Position numbers and translations under genes: made by a program. From contig PRDI01000042.1 in NCBI GenBank assembly GCA_003345595.1, positions 1-32,716 of the forward strand: 32,716 nucleotides of DNA. Direction: 5' to 3'. This document shows positions 867-19,125 of this stretch, in pieces. The notes beneath the pieces were generated by a model. The model was not told the origin of the DNA. It worked only from the letters and a program-made list of their open reading frames with translations, and did no database searches. This DNA is from Candidatus Thorarchaeota archaeon. Lineage in GTDB: Archaea > Asgardarchaeota > Thorarchaeia > Thorarchaeales > Thorarchaeaceae. Position 1 is the stretch's first letter. Every line of letters starts with the position of its first letter.

Positions 867-1035
867 CCTGAGTTTTTGAATTCATCTATGCAGGGTGACA
901 CAAAAGGGCGGACATGGGTGCGCGCCGCACGAGACATCTATCATCTGCACACAATTCCTTACACGGAAAGAATGAGGAACGTGTCGGTGAGAGCTGGATT
1001 CGTTCTGCGTCGTGGCTCTGCATAACAGAAAGAGA

Positions 1036-1071
1036 TGGTAGCGGGGTCGATTTGAACGACCGGTCTCAGGG
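1036..1071 (-). repeat. tRNA-Met 3'-fragment repeat R1 (truncated type)
   Basis: In tRNA sense it reads CCA, acceptor strand, T-arm with TTCAAAT loop and variable region, but it loses similarity inside the anticodon stem (plus strand CTCAGGG then GCGTTTC). The CAT anticodon is absent. Confidence 0.85.
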
Positions 1072-1188
1072 CGTTTCAGACATCTGTCATCGAAACCAAA
1101 GAGACAACATGACAGGGTGCGAGGGAGCGTCTGATGGACAGCGAATCTTCATATCTCTCAGAACACAATACGTTTTGAGGGAAGCATA
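1072..1188. promoter_or_regulatory. Leader and TATA-like box of zinc-ribbon gene
   Basis: A CTTCATATCTCTC segment near 1147-1159 resembles an archaeal TATA region about 40 nt before the TTG start at 1189. The same CTTCATATC element, followed by a similar ACAATA and TTGAGG pattern, precedes the paralogue at 28216, so the promoter and leader are conserved between the two cassettes. Confidence 0.5.
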
Positions 1189-1719
1189 TTGAGGCAAGGG
1201 GAGCGGTCGGATAACATCTACGTCGTCGTGGACTCATCCAAAATAGCTCGATGTGCTTGGTGCGGCACTATGGAGAGCAAGAACTGGAGGGTCTCCCGCT
1301 ATGGTCTCTACTGCTCGCATGCGTGTTCTTTTGCAGCCGGTGCGCCGGTCTTAATCTGTACGAGTGTTTTCTTTCTAGCCCTGGGTTTCGGTATAGTAAT
1401 GACGGTTGGCTGGGGGGCCGTCGGTATCTTTTCTTGTTTCCTGATGTTGGCGTTGCCTCCACTCTGCTGCGGCCTACAGGGGCAGAGCCACAGACGATCA
1501 GTGCCGAGGAATTCAATGGCAGACGAAGTCTCCCTTCATACTGCATTGCTCGCAACAGTGGCAACTTCCGTAGTGTGTCCTAGGTGTGATGCAGAACTAG
1601 ACCTGCGGAGCATCGGCAAGGACAGGGTCTATGCGTGTGGTTACTGTGGGACCACAGGTACCATCGCAGTCATCGACAAGAGCAAACAGAGAGGAAGTAG
1701 TGGCGGTCAGTCGGACTGA
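1189..1719 (+). CDS. Double zinc-ribbon membrane protein (family B, copy 1)
   Basis: A 176-residue protein of unknown function. Residues about 20-45 hold a Cys pair CAWCG and a YCSHAC pair, like an FCS-type treble-clef zinc site. Residues about 52-98 form two membrane spans. Residues about 133-157 hold a second ribbon with CPRC and CGYC. It is about 50-60% identical by eye to the protein at 28216-28743, including the N-terminus, which supports the unusual TTG start: both begin TTGAGG and read MR.GE.SD.IYVVVDSS. The last codons run into a decayed repeat remnant (1697-1720). The layout suggests a membrane-anchored sensor or adaptor with cytosolic zinc ribbons; this is inference. Confidence 0.75.
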   Translation: MRQGERSDNIYVVVDSSKIARCAWCGTMESKNWRVSRYGLYCSHACSFAAGAPVLICTSVFFLALGFGIVMTVGWGAVGIFSCFLMLALPPLCCGLQGQSHRRSVPRNSMADEVSLHTALLATVATSVVCPRCDAELDLRSIGKDRVYACGYCGTTGTIAVIDKSKQRGSSGGQSD

Positions 1720-1720
1720 T
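1697..1720 (-). repeat. Decayed tRNA-fragment repeat remnant
   Basis: The sequence just before it (AGAGGAAGTAGTGGCGG) matches the left flank and acceptor part of better copies, for example AGAGGAAGTGGTAGCGG at 26608-26624. The T-arm part is then lost (GTCAGTCGGACTGAT). It sits exactly where the paralogous gene at 28743 meets repeat R22. Confidence 0.5.
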
Positions 1721-1722
1721 AT

Positions 1723-2244
1723 CTACACCTTGGCTTCATCCTGCTTCTCAACACCCGGGAGTGCCAACCAGACAAGCCTACCGAGCACTCCATTTGGAAT
1801 CGATGTGATCAGGACTGATAGCCCAAACAATGCAATCGAGGCCTCTAGATTGCTGGCAAAATGCCCGCCGGGTTGGATCCCTGCCAGTAGCGCCATAAAG
1901 AGAATTACCGGCAGCTGCATGATGCAGAGGAGCGCGAACAGGGCTGCTCCATCTCTGAGAGCCACTTCGGTTTCTTGCCGTGTCTGTTTAGTCTGAGTAG
2001 ACCACAGGCGTGCGGCTATTGCAGAGTTGACTGCCCCCAGAACAATAAACCCTCCTAGGAAGCCATACACAGTCGCAATCAGGGCCAAGATCGGCTCATA
2101 GGTGAGCGGACGAGGTTCGTAGCTCAATATCCAATCAGCGGAAAAAGCAAGGGGCCAGAGTCCGGCCAACAGTACCGAGAAGAGAATCCCGTGCAGGAAG
2201 TGTCTGCCTACGGACAATGCGCCGAACATGCCTCTCTCACTCAT
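1723..2244 (-). CDS. Four-span membrane protein of unknown function
   Basis: I do not recognise this 173-residue protein. It has about four hydrophobic segments: residues 15-35, 50-78, 99-123 and 133-155. A conserved-looking RLWSTQTKQTRQETEVALRD stretch forms a charged loop in the middle. The ATG at 2244 has a GGTGA ribosome-binding-like sequence six bases upstream. The gene converges with the zinc-ribbon gene, with their ends three bases apart, the decayed repeat lying at that junction. It may belong to a separate, older cassette. Membrane location is seen; function is not inferable. Confidence 0.65.
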   Translation of the reverse strand: MSERGMFGALSVGRHFLHGILFSVLLAGLWPLAFSADWILSYEPRPLTYEPILALIATVYGFLGGFIVLGAVNSAIAARLWSTQTKQTRQETEVALRDGAALFALLCIMQLPVILFMALLAGIQPGGHFASNLEASIALFGLSVLITSIPNGVLGRLVWLALPGVEKQDEAKV

Positions 2245-2338
2245 CGTATATCACCATGCGAATAGATGAAATACGCCCAGTACCGGAGATCGCTGTATTC
2301 CTATGAACTTTCCGTAGCAAAGGCAGGCCGTAATGACA

Positions 2339-2364
2339 CTTCGGAAACGCTCCGTTTCCGGAAG
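2339..2364. other. Perfect 8-bp inverted repeat (hairpin)
   Basis: CGGAAACG (2342-2349), a 3-nt loop, then CGTTTCCG (2353-2360); the flanking CTT and AAG can extend it around one bulge. It lies between the divergent starts of the membrane protein gene (2244) and the tautomerase gene (2438). It could be an operator or an RNA hairpin; no T-run follows, so an intrinsic terminator is less likely. Confidence 0.5.
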
Positions 2365-2408
2365 GGACAAAGATGGGTCTTGACGGGACAGGATCCGAAA
2401 TCAGAGCC

Positions 2409-2437
2409 GTTTAATACCTGTAGTCCAAGGTCAACAT
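2409..2437 (+). promoter_or_regulatory. Promoter of tautomerase-like gene
   Basis: A TTTAATACC TATA-like box at about 2410-2418 lies about 20-25 nt before the ATG at 2438. That spacing predicts a leaderless transcript, common in archaea. Confidence 0.5.
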
Positions 2438-2641
2438 ATGCCAAGTGTTGACGTCAAGGTGTGGAAAGGCCTGTCAGAAGACGCTGCAGAGCATATCATC
2501 TCGGGGATCACCAAGGTCTTTGTTGAGTTAGGAATCCCCGAGCGAGCCGTCGAAGTCATCATTCATGAGATCCCAAAGACGCACTGGGGTGTCGGGGGGA
2601 GGCCCGCCTCCAAAGCGATGGCAGACGCACGGCCTCCCTAA
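2438..2641 (+). CDS. 4-oxalocrotonate tautomerase family protein
   Basis: A 67-residue protein of the size of 4-OT subunits. It begins Met-Pro, giving the N-terminal proline that acts as catalytic base in this superfamily after Met removal. It then has the family pattern: beta strand SVDVKVWKG, helix with ITKVFVELG, second strand AVEVIIHEIPK and a HWGVGG turn near residue 50. Members are homo-oligomers that tautomerise enol/keto acids or dehalogenate; the substrate here is unknown. The start is fixed by the Pro and by the promoter 20-25 bases upstream. It stands alone, followed by more than 600 bases with no recognised gene. Confidence 0.85.
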   Translation: MPSVDVKVWKGLSEDAAEHIISGITKVFVELGIPERAVEVIIHEIPKTHWGVGGRPASKAMADARPP

Positions 2642-2933
2642 GCACTCCCTCAGTAGTCACCCCGGCTTGCTCACAGTTAGCAGTAGGTTGCATCCGGTGT
2701 GAAGTTCCTGTAGGCTGCTGCAAGAGGAATGGAGAGAGAGGTCCACGCTTTCCAGTTCACTTCCAGCGAAACACAATTCCTAGTGGCTGGTGCAGGAAGA
2801 CGGCGGCGTGAGGTCCATTCTCTTAATACCACTCCCCAGCAGGTTACGCTCTTGGACAGTGTACGAAATCGAGAGGTTTCTTCTATGCTCTCGATGACAG
2901 ATGGCCGTAAGGAGGAGCAGTTGGAAAGGAGAT

Positions 2934-2970
2934 TGCAGCGGGCCCTCGATTTGAACGACCGGTCTCAGGG
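2934..2970 (-). repeat. tRNA-Met 3'-fragment repeat R2 (truncated, acceptor side)
   Basis: Keeps the T-loop and variable region (plus strand TCGATTTGAACGACCGGTCT) and most of the acceptor, with changes at the T-stem edge (GGGCCC instead of GGGGGT). It stops at CAGGG in the anticodon stem. Together with R3 it looks like one R20-type copy split by 183 bp. Confidence 0.7.
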
Positions 2971-3153
2971 TATGCAACAGCTGCGTAGAAGTTGGACAAT
3001 CTTGGACATTTTCGAGTAGGGGCTTGAATAGCTCGAATCAGACGTCTCTTTGAGGCTGGCTCGACACAATCCAGCCTCAAGGAGTACGACCCCAGTGCCG
3101 TTTCTGGGAGGACAAAGACTCCTGTGTCCAACTCTGTCCAACTTACAATGAAC

Positions 3154-3204
3154 GGCTCTACTCATCCAGCTCCGATTGAGCTCTAGAAGCGAGCCCTGCG
3201 GGAT
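3154..3204 (-). repeat. Repeat R3: anticodon/D side with intron-like insert
   Basis: Contains the right end GAGCCCTGCGGGAT (3191-3204) preceded by about 35 nt (3154-3190) that match the insert in R20: GGCTCTACTC, then CCAGCTCCGATTGAGCTC. In tRNA sense this follows CAGGGCTC, near the anticodon. The T-arm and acceptor are missing here and are found at R2. Confidence 0.65.
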
Positions 3205-3292
3205 TATATGATGGTTGCAGAAGATACTCTGTCTGCACTGCTGTCTCACCTTCTGCACCATGATTGTCATCCTTTGCCATTCGTGGCGGCAG

Positions 3293-4162
3293 CTATTCGC
3301 GCAAGAAATCGACCATTACCCTGTTGACCTCCTCCGGGTAGTCACGCTGAGTCCAGTGCCCGGCTCCCTCGATGATGTGCAGCTTGGCATTCGGGATACG
3401 CCCCGCTGCTTCTCTGGCATACTTCACGGGCACACCGATGTCCGCCGTTCCGTGCACGATTAGCGTCGGTACCTTAATCTCGCCCAAGCGCGGCACGTAG
3501 CAAGTCTTCACCCCTGTCCAGCGCGCCTCGTCCCTCTGGAACTGCGCGAACATCTTCCCGGCATTTGGATTCCTGAGCGCCACCACTGCCTCATCGATCA
3601 GCGCTTCAGTCAATGAAGCCGGGTCGCGGATAATTGTCTTCATCGTTTCTCTGATCATCCAGCGCGAAGAGCGGACCATCGCATAGAAGAGATTGTTGAC
3701 CAGCGGCAGCTTGACTAGTAGAACGCTGAAGAAGTGAGCCGATGTCTTGTCCTGCAAGCCGTAGGTCCCAATCAAGATGAGCTTTTCAACACGCTCCGGG
3801 TGCGCCAGCGTGAAACCCAACGCTGCCCCCCCGCCCATCGAGATGCCTGCCAGCGACGCCTCTTTCAACCCCCAAGCCTCCAGCAGACCTGTAGTGACCT
3901 CTATCAGCAGTTCCTGTGTGAATGGCTTTGGAGGAGGGGGACTGCTGCCATAGCCCGGCCAGTCCGGCAGGTACACTTGGAACCCTGCCTCGACCAGCGC
4001 CGGGACGGTATCCCGCCAAGACAGCATGGCCGAGTCCACTCCGCCACCGTGCAGCAACACCACTGGCTTGCCTTTCTTTCCACCGAAGAGATAGGTATTG
4101 ACCTCATATCCCCCCGGGAGGGATACGGTTTCCTGCTGTCCCTGCGGCACGGATATTATCAT
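3293..4162 (-). CDS. Alpha/beta-fold hydrolase
   Basis: A 289-residue cytosolic serine hydrolase. HGGG near residue 38 forms the oxyanion region. The nucleophile elbow is GISMGGG (Ser near 107). The acid is likely the Asp in HGTADIGVP near residue 240, and the catalytic His is in GAGHWTQRDYP near 268. Length and order fit the epoxide hydrolase / C-C hydrolase branch; the substrate cannot be told. The ATG at 4162 has a GGTAGGAG ribosome-binding site 6-10 bases upstream. The leader (about 4190-4282) is shared with family A membrane-protein cassettes, so this gene seems to sit behind a re-used promoter region. Many prolines and GC-rich codons make its composition slightly different from its neighbours. 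Confidence 0.88.
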   Translation of the reverse strand: MIISVPQGQQETVSLPGGYEVNTYLFGGKKGKPVVLLHGGGVDSAMLSWRDTVPALVEAGFQVYLPDWPGYGSSPPPPKPFTQELLIEVTTGLLEAWGLKEASLAGISMGGGAALGFTLAHPERVEKLILIGTYGLQDKTSAHFFSVLLVKLPLVNNLFYAMVRSSRWMIRETMKTIIRDPASLTEALIDEAVVALRNPNAGKMFAQFQRDEARWTGVKTCYVPRLGEIKVPTLIVHGTADIGVPVKYAREAAGRIPNAKLHIIEGAGHWTQRDYPEEVNRVMVDFLRE

Positions 4163-4208
4163 TTGGTTCTCCTACCTTGGTATGTTTTCGCGTCTTGCGT
4201 CCTCTCTT

Positions 4209-4282
4209 CTCTCCAGTCTTCATGCATTCACTGGTGCACGGGAGTCGCTACCTTTTCTGTATTGTCGTTCGGTGAGAATCGG
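4209..4282 (-). promoter_or_regulatory. Shared leader of minus-strand cassettes (class IV), copy 1
   Basis: The block CCTTTTCTGTATTGTCGTTC (plus strand, 4251-4270) and about 40 nt on its gene-proximal side (CTTCATGCATTCACTGGTGC) resemble the regions upstream of three family A genes, and in part the DUF488 gene. In gene sense the core is ACAATACAGAAAAGG. It probably contains the promoter. Confidence 0.5.
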
Positions 4283-4321
4283 GACGGTGATTGTTTCGTC
4301 CACGAGATGATGAGAATGATA

Positions 4322-4376
4322 TGGTAGCGGGGGTCGATTTGAAAGACTGATCTCAGGGTCATGAGTCCTGCGGGAT
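4322..4376 (-). repeat. tRNA-Met 3'-fragment repeat R4 (full type)
   Basis: Full-length copy with CAT anticodon. The T-stem is damaged: GAAAGACTG replaces GAACGACCG, so the T-arm no longer pairs fully. The right flank GATATGAGCTTG belongs to the extended consensus. Confidence 0.85.
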
Positions 4377-4492
4377 GATATGAGCTTGTAAGCGGCAGCT
4401 GCGATTGCACCATGAATTCGTGGTTTCTTGGTTGCGTGTTTCACGGGGATTTATACAGCAGAAGAACGATCCGAAGACTGAGGGGTTCCCGA

Positions 4493-4700
4493 ATGGAATC
4501 AGAAGAAATCATGAAGACTGTAGATGATGTAATCGAGCTAGTGAAGGACGTACCTGAGCCGTGCCGTCTGACAGATTTCCCGACCAGACCCCCAGAAGAC
4601 ACAGGAGGATAACAGTCTGCTTGCTGATTTTCACATTGACCCTACCAAGGATCCGGCTCATGATTTCCGAGAGAACTGGATATATCGGGCTTCGCGGCGC
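4493..4700 (+). pseudogene. Possible frameshifted small-gene remnant
   Basis: A coding-like start, MESEEIMKTVDDVIELVKDV followed by PEPCRL, runs in one frame from 4493 to 4612. A coding-like tail, SLLADFHIDPTKDPAHDF then RENWIYRASRR and stop, continues in the +1 frame from about 4602 to 4700. One frameshift near 4590-4602 would join them into about 69 residues. I do not recognise the family. It lies directly before the luciferase-like gene and may be the stump of an earlier cargo gene. Confidence 0.3.
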
Positions 4701-4725
4701 TGAAACATGCTGGAGGAACAGGTCT

Positions 4726-5574
4726 ATGAGGTATGGCATCTCAATAGAGAACTTCGGATGGTTTGGGGACATCAACCTCATGCTCAAGTTCGCGGTCGAA
4801 GCAGAGAAGGCAGGCTGGGATGGTTTCTTTCTTTGGGACCATCTTCAGATATTCCCGCCAAGCGAGGCCATGCCCTTCATAGATTCTTGGATGGCCCTCG
4901 CTTCGATAGCCGTGAAGACGAAGAAGATGCGACTTGGGCCAATGGTGACACCGCTTCCCAGAAGAAGACCGTGGAAGCTCGCGAGGGAGGCAGCGACACT
5001 GGATCATCTGTCTAATGGTCGGTTAACACTAGGTGTCGGTATTGGTGCGCCGCCTAATCCTGAGTTCGCGTCCTTCGGGGAAGACACGAATCCGCGCACA
5101 CGAGCAGAGAAGCTTGACGAAGGTCTTGATGTGATCACTGGACTATGGTCTGGTGAAGCGTTCTCCTATGAGGGCAAGCACTACCATGTGCATGAGGCTC
5201 GATTCCTGCCCAAGCCCAAGCAACAGCCGCGAGTTCCCATATGGATCGGCGGAGGGTGGCCGAAGACAAGCCCTTTCAGACGGGCGGCCAAGTACGATGG
5301 TGTAGTACCTGTTCACACAGACTGGCCCAAGAGAATAACCACTGCCAATCTTGAAGAGATACTCCGACTAATTGAGTCTGAGAGAGGAAATCTTCGTGAC
5401 TATGATGTTGCAGTATCAGGTCACACTGCCGGCAACGATTCCACGGAAGACCGCGAACTCATGCAGTCTTGGATTGATGCTGGCGCGACTTGGTGGCTGG
5501 AGGAAATCGAGAGTCTGCGTGGCGGCCTCGAAGAGCTGAGAGAGAGGGTCGAAAGAGGTCCTCCTCAAGCTTGA
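4726..5574 (+). CDS. LLM-class flavin-dependent oxidoreductase
   Basis: A TIM-barrel, luciferase-like monooxygenase/F420 oxidoreductase of 282 residues. Typical blocks are the start MRYGISIENFG, then AEKAGWDGFFLWDHL near residue 30, LASIAVKTKKMRLGPMVTPL near 70, the WKLAREAATLDHLSNGRLTL block near 90, and VPIWIGGGWP near 170. Archaeal members often use coenzyme F420, but FMN is also possible. The start at 4726 is chosen because GGAGG (4712-4716) lies nine bases upstream and the family motif starts there; the open frame goes back to 4561 without family similarity. The substrate is unknown. It is the only gene recognised between R4 and R5. Confidence 0.9.
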   Translation: MRYGISIENFGWFGDINLMLKFAVEAEKAGWDGFFLWDHLQIFPPSEAMPFIDSWMALASIAVKTKKMRLGPMVTPLPRRRPWKLAREAATLDHLSNGRLTLGVGIGAPPNPEFASFGEDTNPRTRAEKLDEGLDVITGLWSGEAFSYEGKHYHVHEARFLPKPKQQPRVPIWIGGGWPKTSPFRRAAKYDGVVPVHTDWPKRITTANLEEILRLIESERGNLRDYDVAVSGHTAGNDSTEDRELMQSWIDAGATWWLEEIESLRGGLEELRERVERGPPQA

Positions 5575-5642
5575 GAGCAAACACGCTGGGCTCTGCCATA
5601 ACTATGGAAACCCTTTCGAACCATGACCAATCAGTTGAGAAG

Positions 5643-5697
5643 TGGTATCGGCGGTCGATCTGAACGACCGATTTCAGGGTCATGAGCTCTGCGGGAT
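5643..5697 (-). repeat. tRNA-Met 3'-fragment repeat R5 (full type)
   Basis: Full-length with CAT anticodon and a G at tRNA position 58 (TTCAGAT loop). The flank GTATAATCTGG is the same as at R17, whose neighbour is a paralogous gene, so the similarity extends from the repeat into the cassette. Confidence 0.88.
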
Positions 5698-5717
5698 TGT
5701 ATAATCTGGACGGCCCG

Positions 5718-6437
5718 CTATGCTGGTATCTGTCCTTGCTCCATGGTCCTAACGTATCTACGCCTCGAGAAGTACGTGAAAAGACCGAGTTGGAGGAGGC
5801 CTAAGGCAGCGGAAGCCAATAGAAACACGCTTGACAGTCGGGCAAGATTGATGTAGCCCACGAGCGCTAGGTCCCCGAAGATGAGCAGGTACGCAACGCG
5901 CTGAGCCAATACCCAGACGACGATGGTCAAGACGAGCACGGAATAGGAGGAGTTCGTTATCGTATTATTACGGATTGTTCTACCCACCCGAAGGAATGGA
6001 ATCGCAACGGTACAGTAGAAACCCGCCACGAATGACGAGCTCGCGAGTAGGGACTGAGTGATACTCTCATAGATGCCCAGCATTAGCACGATGGTGAGCA
6101 CTCCTCCAATAAGCAGTGTCACGAACCATGCATGGTCCCACAGTTTCCAGTAGAAAGGTTCCTGGAGTTCCCGCGCATTGGCGCCGGCAGTTTCAGGACT
6201 TGCTCTCCCTGGCACTTGAGTAGAGGGTGACTGCCTGACCCCCCTCTCGCGAAGAATCTCGCCCACTTCGGTGTAGAGGCCAAAGAGAATCAGGCCAAAG
6301 AACAAGATCTGAACGGTGATCATTCCGTCTACGTCGAATCCGAAGCGGAACAAGTCTGGCGAGAAGATTCCGCCGAGTACGCCCGCGGCCAGTGTGGTCG
6401 CAGCGAGCAGCCACGATGACTTCGCTTCCTCATTCAC
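5718..6437 (-). CDS. Polytopic membrane protein, family A copy 1
   Basis: An unrecognised integral membrane protein of 239 residues with about six hydrophobic segments (roughly residues 8-28, 38-62, 100-125, 128-152, 160-185, 195-230). It is clearly related to the proteins at 21057-21824 and 23237-23953: shared LAAGVLGG, SPDLFRFGFDVDG, LFGLYTEVGEILRERG, SFVAGFYC, and a C-terminal FSRRRYVRTMEQGQ like FSRPKGLRTVEPAQ. The GTG start at 6437 is preferred to an ATG at 6473: alignment with the paralogues begins there, and GGAGG lies ten bases upstream, as in copy 2. Function unknown. Confidence 0.75.
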   Translation of the reverse strand: MNEEAKSSWLLAATTLAAGVLGGIFSPDLFRFGFDVDGMITVQILFFGLILFGLYTEVGEILRERGVRQSPSTQVPGRASPETAGANARELQEPFYWKLWDHAWFVTLLIGGVLTIVLMLGIYESITQSLLASSSFVAGFYCTVAIPFLRVGRTIRNNTITNSSYSVLVLTIVVWVLAQRVAYLLIFGDLALVGYINLARLSSVFLLASAALGLLQLGLFTYFSRRRYVRTMEQGQIPA

Positions 6438-6452
6438 GTCCTGCGTCCTCCC

Positions 6453-6523
6453 TCGTTTCCAATCTTCATGCATCTGCTGGTCTGAGGGACCAATTGGCTT
6501 TTCTGCATTGTCTTTCGATGAGT
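6453..6523 (-). promoter_or_regulatory. Shared leader of minus-strand cassettes (class IV), copy 2
   Basis: GGCTTTTCTGCATTGTCTTTCG (plus strand, near 6496-6517) with the proximal CTTCATGCAT and CTGGTCTGAGGGACC segment matches the leader of the alpha/beta hydrolase gene at 4209-4282. Confidence 0.5.
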
Positions 6524-6564
6524 CTGGAACGGGGTCACGCTGTCCTTGAGCTGAGGAAAAGAGA

Positions 6565-6616
6565 TGGTATCGGGCGGCCGATCTGAACGACCAATCTCAG
6601 GGTCATGAACCCTGCA
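6565..6616 (-). repeat. tRNA-Met 3'-fragment repeat R6 (full type, altered end)
   Basis: Has the CAT anticodon and G58. The right end changes from CCTGCGGGAT to CCTGCAGACG and passes directly into the leader type also found after R20 and R23. Confidence 0.85.
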
Positions 6617-6700
6617 GACGCGATGAGATTTGCTAGCGCACTCGTCAGTGACACACGCGACCCGCGTCTGCGCGATAGACATGGGTAATGCATCATGGCA
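6617..6700 (+). promoter_or_regulatory. TPR-type leader (class III) in front of an ATC-hydrolase gene
   Basis: GCGATGAG, then CTAGCGCAC, then GTCAGTGAC, then CGCGTCTGCG, then ATGCATCATGG follow the order and spacing of the leaders of the two TPR genes (26697-26810 and 29570-29680). The TATA-like TTTCATATCA part of those leaders is not preserved here. Confidence 0.45.
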
Positions 6701-6790
6701 GACATAGTGCAACGGCAGGAGCAAGTTCCCTGGTAATGGGAAACCGTCCTGACTTCGAAGTCATCCAATGTGGATAACGAAGGAGCCATA

Positions 6791-7330
6791 ATGGCTGCTC
6801 TGAGCCATTCTCTTTTACGTATCTCAGCCTCAACCAAAGACATGACACAGGTGGATACACGAGCTGATGAGCTCACCGAGTTGATCAGACAAATACGCGG
6901 TGCTCGGCCAAATCCAAAGAAGCTGAAAGCTCTGCTTGAGAAGTATGAGAGAGAGTTCGGGTTTGAGGCAGAGAAACAGGCTCTAGATATTATAGCGAAG
7001 ACAACCACAAGAGCATGGTCTAAACTCGCGGAGGAAAGAGAGAGTCGCGGCATTGATGACCTTCTTGATATGCTGTGGGGGTCTTTTGAACAAGCAGGGG
7101 GTGTCTTTACTGTTGAAAGAACTGAGGACTCTGCGCAGATTCACTGCACGAGATGCCCAATAGCAGATTCGTATCTCAGCATTGGTAAACCCAAGTACGG
7201 GCTAATATTCCACTGTAGTACGGATCCACACATTGTTGCAGGGTTCAATCCGGAGATAGAGTTCAGAGTAACGAAGAGGCTCATGAGTGGGGATGACTGC
7301 TGTGATCACTATTATCGCTTGAGAAGGTGA
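6791..7330 (+). CDS. ATC-hydrolase family (L-2-amino-thiazoline-4-carboxylate hydrolase-like) protein
   Basis: A 179-residue protein whose C-terminal half carries the pattern I associate with this family: a Cys-containing HCTRCPIADSYL, then FHCSTDPHIVAGFNPEIEF, then RLMSGDDCCDHYYRL near the end. The N-terminal half is helical and charged. Named members hydrolyse a cyclic thiazoline amino acid, but most have unknown substrates, so only the family is claimed. The start at 6791 follows AAGGAG (6779-6784) seven bases upstream; an ATG at 6842 is an alternative. A longer relative lies at 30968-31705. Confidence 0.65.
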   Translation: MAALSHSLLRISASTKDMTQVDTRADELTELIRQIRGARPNPKKLKALLEKYEREFGFEAEKQALDIIAKTTTRAWSKLAEERESRGIDDLLDMLWGSFEQAGGVFTVERTEDSAQIHCTRCPIADSYLSIGKPKYGLIFHCSTDPHIVAGFNPEIEFRVTKRLMSGDDCCDHYYRLRR

Positions 7331-7451
7331 ACTGCTCCAATTATCCGCGTTTTCAGAGAACCTCGGTGTATCAACAGGTTCACGAGTGGGAAGTTCTCCA
7401 CAAGACGACCGTATTCGAGTCTGACAATACTTAGAAAACCGAGAAAGGAAA

Positions 7452-7506
7452 TGGTAGCGGGGGTCGATCTGAACAACCGGTTTCAGGATCATGAGCCCTG
7501 CGGCAT
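7452..7506 (-). repeat. tRNA-Met 3'-fragment repeat R7 (full type)
   Basis: Full-length with CAT anticodon and G58. AACAACC instead of AACGACC gives a G-U wobble in the T-stem, so pairing is kept. The end is CGGCATTGTGTG. Confidence 0.87.
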
Positions 7507-7509
7507 TGT

Positions 7510-7677
7510 GTGTTGGAGGCCGGTGCCGTAGCTATTCACGTTGGGGTGAATCTGGAGCCCATGTTGAGTGATTACTATAGACTGCGTGGGTGGAACCTAG
7601 AAAACGGACTTCCCACGGACGATACATTGCGAAGACTATCTCTCAAGTGGACTCGTACCAGCTTCCTACGGAAGTAG
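7510..7677 (+). pseudogene. C-terminal fragment of aldehyde:ferredoxin oxidoreductase
   Basis: An open frame of 55 codons ending at TAG 7675-7677 reads NLEPMLSDYYRLRGW, then NGLPTDDTLRRLSLKW. This is the characteristic last stretch of tungsten-containing AOR-family enzymes (pattern ML..YY.LRGWD..G.PT..TL..LGL). A full AOR is about 600 residues, so more than 90% of the gene is missing. The fragment begins four bases after repeat R7, suggesting a recombination event at the repeat removed the rest. It has no start or promoter of its own and is not expected to be functional. Confidence 0.7.
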
Positions 7678-7767
7678 CCAATCCCAGCCGACCGAATAGG
7701 ATATAGACAAATGCCCGTATCTGGAAATAGGCATTTTAAGCATGCCATCAGGGAGAGCTCTCAGATA

Positions 7768-9978
7768 ATGGTGAACAAGAACTTAGCAGTATCTCTATTC
7801 GTAGTCTTCTTGGTGTCTTCCTTCACGGCCTTTGCACAGACGACGCTCCCACAATCACAGAATGTCCCTCAAGTAACGCCTCAAATGACAATTAATCCAA
7901 CTGGTTACAGCATAAATTCGGACTTGCCCGGATCAAGTGTTTTGATACGGGAATACGTACTACCTGCGGGTAGTCCGGCCACAACCTATGTGCCATCGAC
8001 AGGTCCGAGTTTTCCCACAGACGTAACCTATGATGCTCTTGGATTCATATGGTTCACTGACATCTTCAACAACAGGATATATCGTCTGACGCCAGCGACG
8101 GAGATTAACCAAACCTCAACTACAGCATTGAAGTGGCAACTGCCTCTGACTTTGAACATGACGCGTGGTCCGGCCCACATCATTGTTGATGATGCTCATA
8201 CCTGCGTCTGGTTCACTGATTACGCAAGTATGCAAATCAGTCGTCTCGACTGGATAACCAATCTACTCACAGACTGGACTATCCCAAGGAACTTGAACAT
8301 TCACCCTTGGGATTTGATCATGGATACGGAAATTGGCAACATCTGGTTCACCGCATTCAACATGTCCAAGTTCTGCGAGCTTAACCCTGGCAGCGGCACC
8401 CTGTTCGTCTACAACTTGTTGGTGCCGGGTGCCACTGGGGGGTTCCTGCCTGCACGTCTTGCAGAAATGAAGCCGAGTGGGGATCATTTCTATATGACAG
8501 ACTTGGGTTTTGACTATCTCTACAAGGTCAAATTCGTCAATCCTATGGCGACAGGAGCTCTCGTTTACCCGCTCGTAGCTGATGGATCCAGCTTAGCACT
8601 AGCAGTAGACAGCAAGGAGAATGTGTGGGTCACTCAGCCCACGAATGACCTCGTGAATGAACAGGTCGTCGGAAGCACGAACAAGTACGTCGGAAACTTG
8701 ACTCTCATACAAACAACTCTGCCCGACGACAGGAATTACGTTAACCCTCAGATAATAGAAATCAGGATTCAGATAACTCCAGTTCGACCCGAGGAATACA
8801 ACATTCCTCCTCGAATAAAGGGTGACCCCTTGGCGATATGGACAGTCCCCTCATCACCGTCCGGACCTTGGGGGATTGATGTCGACACCAATGACAGCGC
8901 ATGGTACACTGAATTCTCCGGCAATCAAATCGGAGTAATCGTCCCGGCATCCAACAAGACAGTGGAGTACATGGTTCCGACAGCTAATTCGCATCCGTTA
9001 TACGTTACTGTGCCGCGGAGTACAATGCCACCTTTTGAAACTCACGTGTGGTTCACGGAGCTTACGGGCGGTAAGATTGGTGAGCTCTTCAGCGCCACCT
9101 ATGTCGATATCCGTGTGGCTCCATCTCTTCCGCCGCAGTATCCTCCACCAAACCCCGGTTCCATACGCTGGACTACCGAGCCTGGTGCGGAGATTTGGAT
9201 TGATGCACCCAGCAACGGGTACAGCTCTGCTCATCATGATGTGCCAGAGAGGGGGGTGGTGAACCATCTCTATGCTCAAGTGACGAACTTGGGCTTCTCG
9301 ACAGCTAGCAACGTTGAGGTCACATTCTACTACCACAACATGTCTGTGTCGTTTGCACAGTTGATTCCGTTGCCGCCCACTGCACCGTTGTCCTCATGCT
9401 GGATCCTAATAGGTAGCACGACAGTATCATCACTGGCACCCAGCCTCTCGATAGATGTGTACGTGAACTGGACAATCGCTTCCAGTGTGCCCGATCACTT
9501 CTGCATAGGTGTGCAAGCTGACGCCGCAGGCGACATTAACCTGTATGATAACGTTGCATACCGTAACTTCGAGATATACAGCATTCTTGCAGGGGTTCCC
9601 ACAACACTCTACTTACCAGTCTGGGCCACGAACTCCCTCAATGGTACAGGTTACATGAGTCTGTCATTATCTGGCGTTCCTGCAGGCTGGACGGCTGAAG
9701 TAAAGCCGAATGGCTTTGAACTTGGAAAAGGCAAGTCCAAGCTGCTGAACCTCACAATCCAGGTGCCCTCATCCACACGGGCTGGCATGCGTGCCGTGAT
9801 AAGACTCACTGGCATGATAAACGGAACCACGACTGGAGCGGTTTGGATTGAAGTGGACATCATTGCCGCAACCACGACGGGGCCATCCATACCCATAGTG
9901 GACATAGCTCTCTTGGGCGGTGGGTTTGTAGCAGGCATTGTGTTAATGCTAGCCATTGGATCTAGGCACAAAAAGTAG
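7768..9978 (+). CDS. Secreted, membrane-anchored beta-propeller protein (Vgb/streptogramin-lyase-like)
   Basis: A 736-residue surface protein. Residues about 1-24 form a signal peptide ending in TAFAQ. Residues about 60-440 hold six or more WFT-type blades (IWFTDIFNNRIYRL, VWFTDYASMQISRL, IWFTAFNMSKFCEL, VWVTQP, AWYTEFSGNQIGVI, VWFTELTGGKIGEL), as in virginiamycin B lyase-like propellers. Residues about 470-620 look like a CARDB/Ig-like domain, and about 630-700 resemble an NEW3-type domain (VPAGWTAEVKP). A final membrane span plus RHKK anchors it. Catalytic activity is not implied. The ATG at 7768 directly precedes the signal peptide, with GGGAGA upstream. It is the largest cargo gene here. 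Confidence 0.82.
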   Translation: MVNKNLAVSLFVVFLVSSFTAFAQTTLPQSQNVPQVTPQMTINPTGYSINSDLPGSSVLIREYVLPAGSPATTYVPSTGPSFPTDVTYDALGFIWFTDIFNNRIYRLTPATEINQTSTTALKWQLPLTLNMTRGPAHIIVDDAHTCVWFTDYASMQISRLDWITNLLTDWTIPRNLNIHPWDLIMDTEIGNIWFTAFNMSKFCELNPGSGTLFVYNLLVPGATGGFLPARLAEMKPSGDHFYMTDLGFDYLYKVKFVNPMATGALVYPLVADGSSLALAVDSKENVWVTQPTNDLVNEQVVGSTNKYVGNLTLIQTTLPDDRNYVNPQIIEIRIQITPVRPEEYNIPPRIKGDPLAIWTVPSSPSGPWGIDVDTNDSAWYTEFSGNQIGVIVPASNKTVEYMVPTANSHPLYVTVPRSTMPPFETHVWFTELTGGKIGELFSATYVDIRVAPSLPPQYPPPNPGSIRWTTEPGAEIWIDAPSNGYSSAHHDVPERGVVNHLYAQVTNLGFSTASNVEVTFYYHNMSVSFAQLIPLPPTAPLSSCWILIGSTTVSSLAPSLSIDVYVNWTIASSVPDHFCIGVQADAAGDINLYDNVAYRNFEIYSILAGVPTTLYLPVWATNSLNGTGYMSLSLSGVPAGWTAEVKPNGFELGKGKSKLLNLTIQVPSSTRAGMRAVIRLTGMINGTTTGAVWIEVDIIAATTTGPSIPIVDIALLGGGFVAGIVLMLAIGSRHKK

Positions 9979-10443
9979 CATCTCTTGGGCTAGGACTTCG
10001 CGTTCCTAGCCTCACCTCTTTCTTCTTCTATGGACTGTATACAACTTCCAGATGTCTGGTCAATGCGTCGTGAATGAGAAGTCCGCCCGAATTTCTGAGT
10101 CTTGTGGCATCCTAGACATTCTGCAGACTTCAAGCGCAGGGAATTGCGGCGAAGCAGCAAGAGGAAGTGGGGGCGGGGGGTCGATTTGAACGACAGGTCT
10201 CTGTGGTTAGCCTTTGACATCAGAGAGCTTAATATCTGAAGGGTCGCTATACAGAAATCTCACCCCGTGTGAAGCGTCTTACGGGCCCGCACTTTCTCCT
10301 CTGACTGCGCTATGTCATCTGCAGTGAATATGGCCGACGTGAGGAGCGGGAATGCAGGAGCCTCGGTTTCCCATGACACGTCTGGAAAGAACACCTTGCC
10401 TGCATTGAGGCAAGTGTCACAAATGCTTGGGGCGTGAAGATAG
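9979..10443. other. Intergenic stretch with repeat R8 and a possible gene fragment
   Basis: Holds repeat R8 (10168-10202) and a right flank resembling the beta-helix gene leader. On the minus strand at about 10260-10430 an open stretch reads ICDTCLNAGKVFFPDVSWET then EAPAFPLLTSAIF and looks coding-like, but it has no clear start and I do not recognise it. It could be a fragment of a lost gene. Confidence 0.35.
10168..10202 (-). repeat. tRNA-Met 3'-fragment repeat R8 (truncated type)
   Basis: Acceptor altered (GGGGGCGGGGGG); T-arm present with A58; the anticodon stem is lost after GGTCTCTG. The next bases (TTAGCCTTTGACATCAGAGA) match those after R25, so this short repeat type has its own conserved right flank. 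Confidence 0.75.
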
Positions 10444-11412
10444 ATGGATTCGTGGCGTAAGCAACTCAGATTCAACCCAATCAAGCCTCTGCTGGATTCA
10501 GGAAATGAGGCTATTGTCTTCTTCACAAAGAGAGACCTATTGAATGAGGATGCGGGTGACATTGAACAGCTGTGGCATATGGAACAGCCACAGAAACTGC
10601 TTGAGAAGCAACAGAATGACGGTTCGTGGAAATACAGAGGAAAGAAGAGTCTGCAGCGTGAGTACAACAAGCTGGAAACATATAGGACGATCGGCTGGCT
10701 TGTTGAGAAATATGGCATGAATAGAGCGCACGTTTCAATTCAGAAGGCAGCGGAATTCCTGTTTAGCTTCCAGACAGACGAAGGTGACTTTCGTGGCATC
10801 TACGGGAATCAGTACAGCCCGAACTACTCCGCCGCCATAATGGAGCTGCTCATCAAGGCAGGGTATGAGAATGACCCCCACATAGACAGGGGTCTGAAAT
10901 GGCTAATTTCCATGCGCCAGAGTGACGGCGGCTGGGCAGGCCCGCTGCGCACACACAAAGTCGAATACAGTGTGATCAGGGATAAGGAAACGCTTCAACC
11001 CGACAGATCCAAGCCGTTCTCGCATTTGGCCACAGGAATAGTCCTCCGAGCATTTGCTGCTCATAAAGAATATAGGAAGAGGAGGGAGATAGTCCACGCA
11101 GCAGAACTGCTCGCATCCAGATTCTTTCAGAAGGACGCCTATCCTGACAGGGCGGACGTCAGCTACTGGACGAGATTCAGATATCCCTTCTGGTGGACGG
11201 ATATACTGTCATCACTTGACTCATTGTCTCTAATTGGCGTGACAGTTGGGAATCAGAACGTCAGAAAAGCACTGGACTGGTTTGTAGGGAAGCAGAACAA
11301 AAGCGGCATCTGGAAGGTGTACCTCCTTGCCAGCGCCAATGACAGGAGGTTTAATGACCTCTGGATCTCACTGGCTATCTGCCGGGTGTTCAAGAAGCTT
11401 TACGTGGGATGA
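10444..11412 (+). CDS. Prenyltransferase/squalene-cyclase-like alpha/alpha-toroid protein
   Basis: A 322-residue soluble protein built of helical repeats of the terpene-cyclase / prenyltransferase-beta type. QW-like repeat signatures recur: LLEKQQNDGSWKYRG near residue 55, FSFQTDEGDFRGIYG near 110, LISMRQSDGGWAGPL near 155, and FVGKQNKSGIWKVY near 280. No DXDD cyclase acid motif is evident, so it may bind rather than cyclise isoprenoids or may act on other ligands. The ATG at 10444 immediately follows an in-frame TAG. It is followed 137 bases later by a GPH transporter with no repeat between, so the two probably form one cassette. Confidence 0.75.
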   Translation: MDSWRKQLRFNPIKPLLDSGNEAIVFFTKRDLLNEDAGDIEQLWHMEQPQKLLEKQQNDGSWKYRGKKSLQREYNKLETYRTIGWLVEKYGMNRAHVSIQKAAEFLFSFQTDEGDFRGIYGNQYSPNYSAAIMELLIKAGYENDPHIDRGLKWLISMRQSDGGWAGPLRTHKVEYSVIRDKETLQPDRSKPFSHLATGIVLRAFAAHKEYRKRREIVHAAELLASRFFQKDAYPDRADVSYWTRFRYPFWWTDILSSLDSLSLIGVTVGNQNVRKALDWFVGKQNKSGIWKVYLLASANDRRFNDLWISLAICRVFKKLYVG

Positions 11413-11549
11413 TTCTATGGTAAAGGACAATGGGGGTTCAATTGATTCTTATCTAGGATAGACTTGTTGCTCCAATGGTTGTGTTAGTCACAAGGCGCCC
11501 GCTGGTTGTGTCTTTGTAGCATCATAGGAAGCGCCAGAGAGTATCCAAG

Positions 11550-13037
11550 ATGACAGACCTTGAAAATCAGCCTAAGGAAGACCCCGATATTGACTTTGAC
11601 GAGCGTTTGCCGGTCAAGTCGAAGATAGCCTTTGGCACGTCTCAGGCTTCCATCAACCTGCTTCAGGTCATAGCTCTTGGTTCCGCAATCACTTTCTACT
11701 ACAATGTCAAGCTAGGCCTAAGCGAAGAATGGATATCCCTTGCCTGGCTCCTGTTCGGGGTTTGGAATGCTCTTAACGACCCCCTGTTTGGCATTCTCCA
11801 AGAGAGGATCAATACAGACATTGGCAGACGCATCCCAGTCCTGCGTTACGGTGCACCATTCTATGCTCTTACCTTCATCATTTGCTGGGTCCCGTTTCTG
11901 GGAAACTCTCAGATAGCCCTGTTCTGGAATCTTCTGCTGGTTCTCTTCTTGTTCGATTCCATGTTCACTATGGTCGGACTGGTACAGACAGCTTTGCCCG
12001 CCGAGATGTGCATTACTCAGAAGGCCAGGTCCAATCTCAACTTGTACAACGTGATTCTGGGCTCTATTGGTGGGCTATTGGCTATGGTACTACCATTGGT
12101 CTTGCTCACCAGTGAGTCATCGACCGAACTCAACCCTCTCTTCAAGCCCGCGATGGTGCTGGCAGGGGTATTTGCTGGAACAGTCCTGTTTCTTTCTAGC
12201 TACGCCTTGACCGAAAACGAGTATGCAAGGACTGAAGAGCCGCTGGGTTTCGTGGAATCGATGGTCAAGGCCCTCAAGAATAGGGAGTTCTTGGCATTTG
12301 AAGCTATGAACTTCCCTCACGAAATGGCTTTCACGATAGTGACTGGTTCCATGATATACTTTGCACAGTACGTCCTGAGATTTCAAGGTCTGATGGCTTC
12401 CATTCCGTTTGCTGCGGTCTTCGGACTCATTCTTCTGTTCAGTTACTTCGCTGACAGGACGGTGAGAAAGCGGGGGCTGAAGCGGGTCTATATTGATGGG
12501 CTATTGATAACGAGTGCCGGGCTCATACTACTGCTCTTCTCGGGGAGCTGGCTGATTGGTGTGGTGCTAAGTCTTGCGGTTGTCGGAATAGGTCTAGCTC
12601 CGGTCTTGTTGATATGGTCCCCGCTGCTGGCTGACGTAATCGACCATGATGAAGCATTGACTGGCAAGAGGCGGGAAACGACTTACGCTGGAATGAACGC
12701 ATTGATCACGAAACCTGCAATCTCCATTGCCAATGCATTGTTCTTGCTGGTCATTAGTGCATTCGGGTTTGACAGCACGCTGAATACGCAGCCAGAGCTG
12801 GCGATCTTTGGGATACGGGTAGGATTCGCGCTGATTCCCTCGATATGTTTCATAGTCAGTGCAGCCACGTTGTGGAAATGGTACAAGCTGGATGGCAAAG
12901 AGTGGGTTGCTAGGAAAGCCGAACTTGGAATGATACACCTGCAGAAAGAAAAGGAGTACATCAGGTTGCTCCAGAAGGAGGGAAAGATATCCAAGGTCTA
13001 TCAGAAGCTCTATAGAGAACCAGCAGAGGAGTCATGA
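11550..13037 (+). CDS. GPH-type MFS transporter
   Basis: A 495-residue integral membrane protein of the glycoside-pentoside-hexuronide:cation symporter group. The signature NDPLFGILQERINTDIGRRI (residues about 88-107) matches the family's N-D-P..G...D.....GRRRP loop. About 12 hydrophobic segments follow; a second loop FADRTVRKRGLKRV and the DVIDHDEALTGKRRETTYAG motif (near 360) are typical. Substrate could be a sugar, glycoside or other solute. It shares a repeat-bounded block with the alpha/alpha-toroid gene. The C-terminus is charged and cytosolic. Confidence 0.87.
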   Translation: MTDLENQPKEDPDIDFDERLPVKSKIAFGTSQASINLLQVIALGSAITFYYNVKLGLSEEWISLAWLLFGVWNALNDPLFGILQERINTDIGRRIPVLRYGAPFYALTFIICWVPFLGNSQIALFWNLLLVLFLFDSMFTMVGLVQTALPAEMCITQKARSNLNLYNVILGSIGGLLAMVLPLVLLTSESSTELNPLFKPAMVLAGVFAGTVLFLSSYALTENEYARTEEPLGFVESMVKALKNREFLAFEAMNFPHEMAFTIVTGSMIYFAQYVLRFQGLMASIPFAAVFGLILLFSYFADRTVRKRGLKRVYIDGLLITSAGLILLLFSGSWLIGVVLSLAVVGIGLAPVLLIWSPLLADVIDHDEALTGKRRETTYAGMNALITKPAISIANALFLLVISAFGFDSTLNTQPELAIFGIRVGFALIPSICFIVSAATLWKWYKLDGKEWVARKAELGMIHLQKEKEYIRLLQKEGKISKVYQKLYREPAEES

Positions 13038-13059
13038 TGGAAAAGGCAACCGGGACCCT

Positions 13060-13191
13060 GGTGAGATGAGAACGGATTCTATAGAACCGGTCATTCTGCC
13101 AATCATCGTCCTTTGGGTCCAGTTTCACTGCTTTTCTGAAGGCCCCTTCTGCTGATGTATGCTTGGAATCAGGTTTTGGATCGGGTGTCAT
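13060..13191 (-). pseudogene. Single-TPR gene remnant
   Basis: A minus-strand stretch starting at ATG 13191 encodes SAEGAFRKAVKLDPKDDDW, the second helix of a TPR unit, followed by QNDRFY and then non-TPR sequence. The TPR genes at 26833 and 29702 use the same AE.AFRRA.ELDP phrase. It is probably the broken end of a TPR cassette; it overlaps nothing essential. Confidence 0.4.
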
Positions 13192-13354
13192 GTCCTCACA
13201 GCCTGAAATGCCTTACGAACCGTGACAGGCTTCACTCAACCTTCCTCTTGAGAAGGTACGCCGTCCTGTTTTGAGAGGGACATGTGACATACTGCGTTCT
13301 TAGTCTATGAACTTAGTTCATAAGCGGACGAAAGATGGAGTGATTAGAAAGAAG

Positions 13355-13407
13355 TGGTAGCGGGGGTCGATTTGAACGGCCGATCTCAGGGTCATGAGTC
13401 CTGCGGA
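13355..13407 (-). repeat. tRNA-Met 3'-fragment repeat R9 (full type)
   Basis: CAT anticodon and A58 kept; GAACGGCCG instead of GAACGACCG in the T-stem; the end is CTGCGGA rather than CTGCGGGAT. Confidence 0.87.
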
Positions 13408-13614
13408 ACGGAAGGGGAACCCCAGAGTCCTACAAGGGTATCCTTGCTGCCATTGTAGCTTCAATTCGCTCGTTGTCTACGCAACGATTCCTACCTGAAT
13501 GATGACCTAGGTGGTGAAAGCCTCATCTTATGCTGGGTTTCGAGTACACGCGAGAAGAGGAATAACCTCAATGTGGAACAGTAGGCCGCTCTGTCAGGTA
13601 CGCAACTGCGCCCA
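13408..13614. other. Intergenic stretch, nothing recognised
   Basis: About 200 bases between R9 and the end of the toxin gene. I see no gene, strong hairpin or promoter. Confidence 0.4.
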
Positions 13615-14025
13615 CTAGGTCAAGCACGGATCTATGACTTCTATGTTCGGCACATGTCTGAACGACTGATCATGAGTCATGATGCTCCTAATCGCTTCCT
13701 TATCCATCGTCGCCAGAAGCGAGGCATCACGACCCCCGATTCCCAGATGCACGAATTCACACAGCTTCGTTATTGTCAACATCAGTGTTGGCCTGTCCAA
13801 GGCGTACACCGGAATGTCATAGTCCATGAAGATTCGGGCTTTCTCTCCTCCCGCCAGCGGACCCAAGCGTTTCACGAGATAGTGCAAGGTCTCGACAGCC
13901 ACTGTAGCGTTTATCGATGCCTCATTTCGTTTCAGCACTTTCTCAAGAGGTTTCACAACCTGTGTGTGCTCGGGAAGAGTCGAGTCGAAGTAGTACGCCC
14001 AGATATTGGTGTCCACGAGAATCAA
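13615..14025 (-). CDS. vapC: VapC-like PIN-domain toxin
   Basis: A 136-residue PIN-domain ribonuclease. The first acid is in ILVDTNIWAYYF; the middle acid is the Glu of TVAVETLHYL; the third lies in GIGGRDASLLA, followed by IRSIMTHDQSFRHVPNIEVI, giving the usual D-E-D-D set. PIN toxins cut tRNA or rRNA when free of antitoxin. A TTG start at 14025 is chosen: it overlaps the antitoxin stop (TTGA) and has GGAGG eight bases upstream; a longer open frame to 14088 would overlap the antitoxin by 67 bases. The pair is co-transcribed with translational coupling. Confidence 0.85.
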   Translation of the reverse strand: MILVDTNIWAYYFDSTLPEHTQVVKPLEKVLKRNEASINATVAVETLHYLVKRLGPLAGGEKARIFMDYDIPVYALDRPTLMLTITKLCEFVHLGIGGRDASLLATMDKEAIRSIMTHDQSFRHVPNIEVIDPCLT

Positions 14026-14270
14026 GGCACTGTCCTCCAAATCTCCTTGAGACGCAATGGGTCCAAGTCGCTCTCCACGGTTATGCATCCTCGAAGCTCG
14101 GCAATGAATGTGTCAAGACTGACGACTCTCTCTATTGTCACACCGTCCTTCTTTGCAGATATCCGGACTCGGTCCCCAGTCTTGAGACCTGTCCTCTCGC
14201 GAATTTCCTTCGGAATGGTCACTCTACCCCGCTCGTCAATCTCGTTCGTTTCACCCATGAGTTCACCCAT
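14022..14270 (-). CDS. vapB: AbrB/SpoVT-type VapB antitoxin
   Basis: An 82-residue protein. Residues about 10-50 are a swapped-hairpin AbrB DNA-binding domain: IDERGRVTIPKEIRERTGLK then TGDRVRISAKKDGVTIERV. The C-terminal tail would wrap the toxin. It precedes the toxin in a four-base overlap. ATG 14270 is used; ATG 14258 is an alternative. A TATA-like TTAATACC lies about 25 bases upstream, within a tandem repeat that looks like an autoregulatory operator. Confidence 0.85.
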   Translation of the reverse strand: MGELMGETNEIDERGRVTIPKEIRERTGLKTGDRVRISAKKDGVTIERVVSLDTFIAELRGCITVESDLDPLRLKEIWRTVP

Positions 14271-14280
14271 TCCCACAATC

Positions 14281-14328
14281 GTGCCCAAAGGTATTAACTG
14301 TATCGCACCCAAAGGTGATGGCTGTACC
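14281..14328 (-). promoter_or_regulatory. Tandem 24-bp direct repeats over the vapB promoter
   Basis: Two adjacent 24-base units, 14281-14304 and 14305-14328, agree at 17 of 24 positions. Both contain CCCAAAGGT followed by CTGTA eight positions after it begins to diverge. The first overlaps the presumed TATA box (minus strand GTTAATACC). Position and symmetry suggest the binding site for the AbrB-type antitoxin. Confidence 0.55.
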
Positions 14329-14405
14329 ACATCTTCGGTGAGATCTCGTCCGAATTGGTGTGCGGTCAACAAAGAAGCACAAGAAGCCACGCAGAAGTTG
14401 AGAGA

Positions 14406-14461
14406 TGGTAGAGGGCGATTGGTTTGAACGACCGATCTCAAGGTCATGAGCCCCGCGGGAT
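14406..14461 (-). repeat. tRNA-Met 3'-fragment repeat R10 (full type, diverged T-arm)
   Basis: CAT anticodon and right end kept (CCCCGCGGGAT). The acceptor and T-stem have changed (TAGAGGGCGATTGGTTTGAA), so the T-stem cannot pair normally. Confidence 0.8.
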
Positions 14462-14611
14462 ACGGTGAATCTTAATCATATAGTGCAAGGATACTCTTCG
14501 CCTACCACCCCTCGTCTCCAAAGGCTACTTGTCCTGCATGCCGTCTCCTCAGCGGTGGGAACAAGGACGCCACATTCAGGAGCACAGGCTGCTTCTCATA
14601 AGGACATTACA

Positions 14612-15190: not shown

Positions 15191-15313
15191 TTCAACTCCC
15201 ACCGCAAGAGCTCAGATGCTACTGCCCTATTGCTGGTGAGCAGCATTTATGCTTGTCCCTGCACGCGTCGCATCTTAGTGGGCATATAGACAGTTCAAGC
15301 TCGGAAAGTGAAA

Positions 15314-15351
15314 TGGTAGCGGGCGGTCAATCTGAACGAGCAATCTCAGGG
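15314..15351 (-). repeat. tRNA-Met 3'-fragment repeat R11 (truncated type)
   Basis: Acceptor and T-arm present with G58 (AATCTGAAC), T-stem imperfect (GAACGAGC). Similarity ends at CTCAGGG, in the anticodon stem. Confidence 0.8.
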
Positions 15352-15372
15352 GCCTCCATCCGAGTATGGCAG

Positions 15373-19101: not shown

Positions 19102-19125
19102 TAAGGCGATGCGGGACTGGAGAGA

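What the first reader, a model, noticed from the sequence alone, without database searches (positions are those of the whole stretch)
7452..7677. Stranded AOR C-terminus four bases from a repeat
Seen: the last 55 codons of an aldehyde:ferredoxin oxidoreductase-like gene (LEPMLSDYYRLRGW...GLPTDDTL) begin directly after R7. A complete gene must once have been here or elsewhere and been cut by recombination at or near the repeat. It hints that cassettes can carry large metabolic genes.
Basis: partly seen in the sequence, partly recalled or inferred. Interest (0 to 1): 0.55.

Follow-up and report, generated by a model that had tools for sequence, protein, structure and literature searches.

The report
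Gene tail trapped in archaeal cassette
A 43-codon scrap of an enzyme gene sits in a long string of small gene cassettes in a Thorarchaeote; a sister genome suggests that it came along when the neighbouring gene was picked up into a string built from copies of the end of a transfer-RNA gene.

Summary
The fragment is real: window 7546-7677 encodes the last 43 codons of an aldehyde:ferredoxin oxidoreductase (AOR; Pfam AFOR_C 347-385, 35 bits). AOR homology starts 35 bp beyond the repeat, not four. In same-genus genome G001 an intact 642-aa AOR is followed directly by a homologue of the window's next gene (755-aa beta-propeller protein); homology is collinear (74%) over window 7546-10030, stops inside the AOR on one side and at a terminator-like hairpin on the other, and repeats flank both sides. 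The complete cargo is the propeller gene; the AOR tail is a passenger, so whole metabolic genes in cassettes are not shown by it. This genome's own AOR locus is intact and keeps another gene order, so the cassette probably came from another lineage. The repeat is the 3' part of the initiator tRNA-Met gene: 24 copies in the window, one orientation. Genus g4 has short arrays that start at the intact tRNA, with cassettes exchanged mostly at a 20-bp tRNA-end core. The recombinase is unknown. Closest known kind: additive genomic islands on tRNA ends; it works like an integron.

The parts
7546..7677 (+). Last 43 codons and stop of an AOR gene (passenger fragment)
   Evidence: AFOR_C 35 bits; collinear with the intact AOR of G001 C39
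7511..7545 (.). 35 bp of unknown origin between repeat and AOR homology; junction inside the AOR reading frame
   Evidence: No alignment to C39 or C12 AOR upstream of 7546; gap counted
7448..7510 (-).
   Evidence: Profile hit; tRNA identity from intact genes of relatives
7711..9978 (+). Complete cargo gene, 755 aa (possible start at 7768): Vgb-like beta-propeller with CARDB domain
   Evidence: Pfam PF24684 75 bits, PF08450, PF07705; only NCBIfam Vgb models far below cut-off; 72% identical homologue in G001
9987..10030 (+). Terminator-like hairpin followed by a pyrimidine-rich run; the homology with G001 ends here
   Evidence: 9-bp hairpin, z -3.94; the G001 counterpart also folds, z -4.01; end of alignment
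10031..10163 (.). 133 bp of unknown origin between the captured block and the next repeat
   Evidence: Beyond the alignment with C39; counted
10164..10222 (-). Next repeat, closing the cassette (tRNA 3' part, right side degenerate)
   Evidence: Profile hit
1032..31843 (-). Extent of the array: 24 copies of the tRNA 3' part, starting at 1032, 2929, 4319, 5639, 6561, 7448, 10164, 13351, 14402, 15310, 16381, 19122, 20138, 20978, 22004, 23160, 24129, 24715, 26612, 28083, 28718, 29543 (partial), 30804, 31803
   Evidence: nhmmer at E <= 0.05, no hit on the other strand; recounted

Best explanation
The fragment is passenger DNA on a cassette. A segment of about 2.5 kb, holding the last 43 codons of an AOR gene and the complete gene behind it up to its terminator-like end, was captured from a locus where the two genes were neighbours, and now lies between two repeats of an array. 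The repeats are copies of the 3' part of the initiator tRNA-Met gene. Shown: the intact gene pair in a sister genome, the collinear match with sharp ends, repeats on both sides, a complete native AOR with another neighbour in this genome, the tRNA origin of the repeat, and blocks shared by genomes in changed order with many ends at the repeats. Inferred: a site-specific recombinase or integrase acting at the tRNA 3' end; entry of new cassettes at the tRNA-proximal end; a donor other than this genome's own AOR locus. Unknown: the enzyme, and how the segment got its repeat.
For: Of 47 family genomes only G000 and G001 have the 755-aa protein at E <= 1e-10; in G001 it lies directly behind an intact AOR. 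1842 of 2490 aligned positions identical, window 7546-10030. No repeat-profile hit at E <= 1 in the 34 kb of G001 C39 examined. G000 C12 is syntenic with C39 up to the complete AOR, but a convergent 331-aa gene follows, as in 15 of 18 relatives compared. Tail DNA: 89/114 to C39, 76/114 to C12. The complete cargo ends at a hairpin. Repeats match the 3' part of intact initiator tRNA genes. Blocks shared between arrays: 12 of 26 ends within 40 bp of a repeat, 1.7 expected at random places, none of 5000 trials as high. In g4, 9 of 15 block ends that are not sequence ends lie in or within 10 bp of the 20-bp core (my count).
Against: No recombinase is tied to the arrays: PF00589 gives 0 matches in G000, G001 and G023, although G004 has 8 and G015 has 3. 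Ends of the AOR block lie 35 and 133 bp from the repeats, not at them, so the repeat did not make these cuts directly. 14 of 26 block ends are not near a repeat, one inverted block lies 2-5 kb from any, two ends are a contig end, and BLAST can run into similar repeats, which favours ends there. Protein identity of the tail does not single out G001: 33/43 to G001, 31/40 to G019's AOR. No reads were available to check the junction.
Confidence: 0.75

Rival explanations
1. The whole AOR plus propeller pair entered the array as one large cassette, and a later deletion removed the first 600 AOR codons.
For: A larger AOR-propeller unit exists in a relative; other units in the array are multi-gene or long.
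Against: No other AFOR_C match on C42 or C22. The left junction would need a second event 35 bp from a repeat.
Confidence: 0.12
2. The block reached the array by homologous or illegitimate recombination unrelated to the repeats; the repeats are old tRNA fragments that happen to flank it.
For: The block ends 35 and 133 bp away from repeats; T-stem pairs of the copies show no covariation, as expected for decaying copies.
Against: Block ends cluster at repeats and at the 20-bp core in g4, so the repeats take part in exchange in general.
Confidence: 0.08
3. The junction is an assembly misjoin or C42 is a contig of another organism.
For: The genome is a draft of 129 contigs, 83% complete, 2.9% contamination.
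Against: The junction is not inside a repeat. GC of C42 (0.521) equals that of C12 (0.521), and tetranucleotide correlation to other G000 pieces is 0.90; but G001 C39 gives 0.89, so this does not exclude a related organism. C22 carries the same repeat type.
Confidence: 0.05

Closest known systems
Additive flexible genomic island with repeats of a tRNA 3' end ('Ca. Methylopumilus' fGI-2, tRNA-Lys; PMC10872708, passages read)
   Different: Here an archaeon and the initiator tRNA-Met; dozens of degenerate, longer repeats; small units; and a cargo that can be traced to a chromosomal gene pair
Integron cassette array / archaeal CALIN (PMC9668308; abstract, two sections and a word search)
   Same: Array of small gene units between sites of one orientation; units reshuffled between genomes; a toxin-antitoxin-like pair among the cargo
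   Different: The site is a tRNA end, not attC; no tyrosine integrase found in G000; genes lie in both orientations, and some units are long
Integrative element in a tRNA gene (for example Heimdallarchaeum elements, PMC8813620, passages read)
   Same: Insertion at a tRNA 3' end that leaves the tRNA gene whole and a 3' fragment behind
   Different: Units of about 0.4-3 kb in g4 with no integrase seen in the ORFs listed, repeated many times in genus g1
Casposons and Cas1-type integration at tRNA ends (listing only; details recalled)
   Same: Integration that duplicates a tRNA end
   Different: No Cas1 search was made; lengths of the repeats vary here

Membership tests
AOR/AFOR (fragment 7546-7677) | Match to the curated AFOR_C profile | tested here: met
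   35 bits, cut-off 27, positions 347-385
AOR/AFOR (fragment 7546-7677) | Complete enzyme with cofactor-binding domains | tested here: not met
   Only the last 43 codons are present
Additive island on a tRNA end | Direct repeats of the 3' end of one tRNA gene between variable cargo | tested here: met
   24 copies in the window, one orientation; tRNA identity from relatives
Additive island on a tRNA end | Array adjoins the intact tRNA gene | tested here: inconclusive
   Met in g4. In G000 and G001 the R1 matches lie only on C42, C22 and C13, and no 5' exon of the gene was found there; contigs end inside the arrays
Integron | Integron-type tyrosine integrase | tested here: not met
   0 PF00589 matches in G000 and G001; drafts 83% and 93% complete
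Integron | attC sites with conserved folded structure and GTTRRRY core (motif recalled) | tested here: not met
   Consensus has GTTCAAA; the tested T-stem shows no covariation. Other folds were not tested
Integron | Cassettes exchanged at the sites | tested here: met
   Shared blocks in changed order; ends enriched at repeats
Integrative element in a tRNA gene | Integrase carried by the element | tested here: not met
   No recombinase among the C42 and C22 ORFs scanned with Pfam; small ORFs were not all scanned
Casposon | Cas1-solo gene and target-site duplication of fixed length | not tested
   No Cas1 search of the genomes was made

The most novel reading that the evidence does not exclude
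Thorarchaeia have an integron-like system of their own: an enzyme that is not a usual tyrosine integrase adds ordinary chromosomal DNA segments beside the initiator tRNA gene, leaving a copy of the tRNA end each time. The AOR-tail cassette would then be a case of cassette birth with the kind of source locus and the product both in hand.
Probability: 0.2. Interest if true: 0.85.

Novelty: new variant of a known kind. Interest (0 to 1): 0.6.

Why it matters
How new gene cassettes form is named as an outstanding question for integrons (PMC8618304, one passage of the conclusions). Here one cassette can be compared base by base with a locus of the kind it came from, which shows where the ends fell: inside the upstream gene, and just past the terminator-like hairpin of the cargo gene. 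It also points to tRNA-end cassette arrays in Asgard archaea at the initiator tRNA gene, with an apparent series from a few cassettes (g4) to dozens (g1).

Tried and rejected
Chance match: rejected by the Pfam score and by the collinear locus in G001.

An AOR in the genome that lacks just this tail: L011 (C58) matched AFOR_C only to position 345, which looked like the missing partner. It is a different AOR type, 31.6% identical to the C39 AOR, with its own ending, and was rejected (for the ending, for identity).

Repeat as a working tRNA or other structured RNA: ARAGORN found no tRNA in the window; Rfam gave one match far below its gathering score; the T-stem shows no covariation, equal to shuffles.

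A virus carrying the site: three pattern scans of viral contigs found none. The genome-contig scan returned mostly single matches in other archaea, taken to be tRNA genes and not examined one by one.

Order of insertion: repeat scores fall away from the presumed tRNA side in C42 (rho 0.54, p 0.009, n 22) and, not significantly, in C22 (rho -0.46, n 7); G001 C13 goes the other way (rho 0.26, n 6). The scores come from a model built on these copies, and C42 31801 was left out. Weak.

Did the tail of G001's AOR come from a cassette? Identity of C39 to C12 along the AOR shows no clear step before the tail. A tree with the 43-residue tail is too short to place it.

One search read three AOR loci (L002, L009, L011) on the wrong strand; one search mended this.

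Full report
What was claimed.

The fragment. The frame is open from 7495 to the stop at 7675-7677. Its last part matches AFOR_C 347-385 with 35 bits, above the cut-off, and PDB ferredoxin oxidoreductases weakly. The genome has 11 other AFOR_C matches, in long open frames; nearest in sequence is the AOR on C12. Alignment to AOR genes starts at 7546, so 43 codons remain, 35 bp beyond the repeat.

The source arrangement. The fragment matches in 46 of 47 family genomes at E <= 1e-4, since AORs are common. The 755-aa protein behind it is in 2 of 47 at E <= 1e-10: the window's genome, in the window only, and G001. In G001 an intact 642-aa AOR and the homologue are neighbours on C39. One alignment, 1842 of 2490 positions identical, joins window 7546-10030 to C39 40615-43083. 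It starts inside the AOR and ends in the pyrimidine-rich run behind a hairpin that folds in both genomes. No repeat-profile hit at E <= 1 lies in the 34 kb of C39 examined.

The home locus in this genome. C12 is collinear with C39 up to and including a complete AOR, 76.7% identical in protein. Behind it lies a convergent 331-aa gene without a Pfam match. A relative of that gene follows the AOR in 15 of 18 relatives compared (L169-L186; not seen in L175, L184, L185), whereas G001 has the propeller gene there. So the window cassette shows the G001 order, not that of its own genome. Tail DNA agrees (89/114 to C39, 76/114 to C12), but protein identity alone does not: 33/43 to G001 and 31/40 to G019's AOR. 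Differences between window and C39 tail fall mostly in third codon positions (7, 4, 19), like those between C39 and C12 (11, 11, 30), so most divergence arose while the tail was part of a working gene. The numbers are small.

The repeat. On the minus strand it reads CAGGG-CTCATGA-CCCTG, a five-base link, GGTCG-TTCAAAT-CGACC, then CCCGCTACCA: anticodon arm, T arm, acceptor end with CCA. Intact genes of relatives give the same 3' part, several with an intron in the D loop or anticodon loop. Three G:C pairs in the anticodon stem and an A1:U72 pair mark an initiator tRNA (criteria recalled). The profile finds 24 copies in the window, 8 on C22 and 7 on G001 C13, none on the opposite strand. Some copies keep the tRNA sequence only up to about the anticodon. 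A covariance model searched in 47 genomes gives 30 matches in G000 and 6 in G001; in genus g4 G015 has 3, G023 2 and G004 2; G017 and G027 have 2 each on different contigs; 27 genomes have one and 13 none (strict filters). In 227 genomes of the phylum a shorter exact pattern occurs more than once only in G000 (9), G001 (2) and G059 (2, on two contigs).

A series of arrays. In g4 the intact initiator tRNA is followed by further copies. A 20-bp core, CACCCGCTACCATTTCTTCT, occurs at three or four places per fetched stretch at up to 5 mismatches, none on the other strand; one of them, at 5 mismatches, may be chance. Units with a 261-aa and a 116/117-aa gene lie between cores and stand in different order in G004 and G015. 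By my count 9 of 15 block ends that are not sequence ends lie in or within 10 bp of a core; the other six are 27, 42, 58 and 237 bp past a core or upstream of the tRNA. Locus L214 (genus g6) also has two core-like sites behind its tRNA at 3 and 4 mismatches; at 5 mismatches opposite-strand matches occur too. Between G000 and G001 five blocks are shared in changed order, one inverted. Of 26 ends of shared or captured blocks 12 lie within 40 bp of a repeat against 1.7 expected, with the caveats given under evidence against.

Mechanism. A 20-bp core is short for homologous recombination, so a site-specific enzyme is inferred. PF00589 is absent from G000, G001 and G023 but present in G004 (8) and G015 (3), and in 18 of 47 genomes overall. 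The enzyme stays open. T-stem pairs in the copies are no better kept than in shuffles, which speaks for copies read as DNA, not as folded RNA. Cargo elsewhere in the window includes MFS transporters, a luciferase-like monooxygenase, TPR proteins, DUF488, a tautomerase and a VapB-like plus PIN pair.

Literature. Ten searches listed no paper whose title or opening abstract describes initiator-tRNA cassette arrays in Thorarchaeota; the library lacks most subscription journals. Nearest is fGI-2 of 'Ca. Methylopumilus' with tRNA-Lys end repeats (PMC10872708, passages). Archaeal integrons use attC sites (PMC9668308, abstract and two sections); its main text holds neither 'Thorarchaeota' nor 'tRNA'.

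Verdict. The fragment is a passenger on a captured neighbour gene, inside an array that is a new variant of tRNA-end islands and behaves like an integron.

Noticed in passing
L216, L217, L218, L219 (genus g4 genomes G015, G023, G004): Short arrays start at the intact initiator tRNA, with a 20-bp tRNA-end core between units shared by these genomes.
   Followed up: partly
L214 (G223, genus g6): Two core-like sites 350 and 710 bp behind the initiator tRNA, same orientation, at 3 and 4 mismatches.
   Followed up: no
window 19241-19937: VapB-like antitoxin and PIN-domain genes side by side in one unit of the array.
   Followed up: no
window 24726-25698 and 31803-32714: Two units of the array are near copies (85-88% identical), with NosD/beta-helix genes; the second runs off the contig.
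   Followed up: no
window 13346-13684 and C22 1-340: 93% identical stretch at the end of C22 and in the window: a duplicated unit or a trace of how the contigs join.
   Followed up: no
G003:C15 and G012:C92 initiator tRNA genes (L221, L222): The T-arm region holds an extra insert of about 30 bp, which looks like an intron at an unusual place.
   Followed up: no
window 26704-27912 and 29615-30781: Two related TPR-protein genes made of 102-bp units in separate array units.
   Followed up: no
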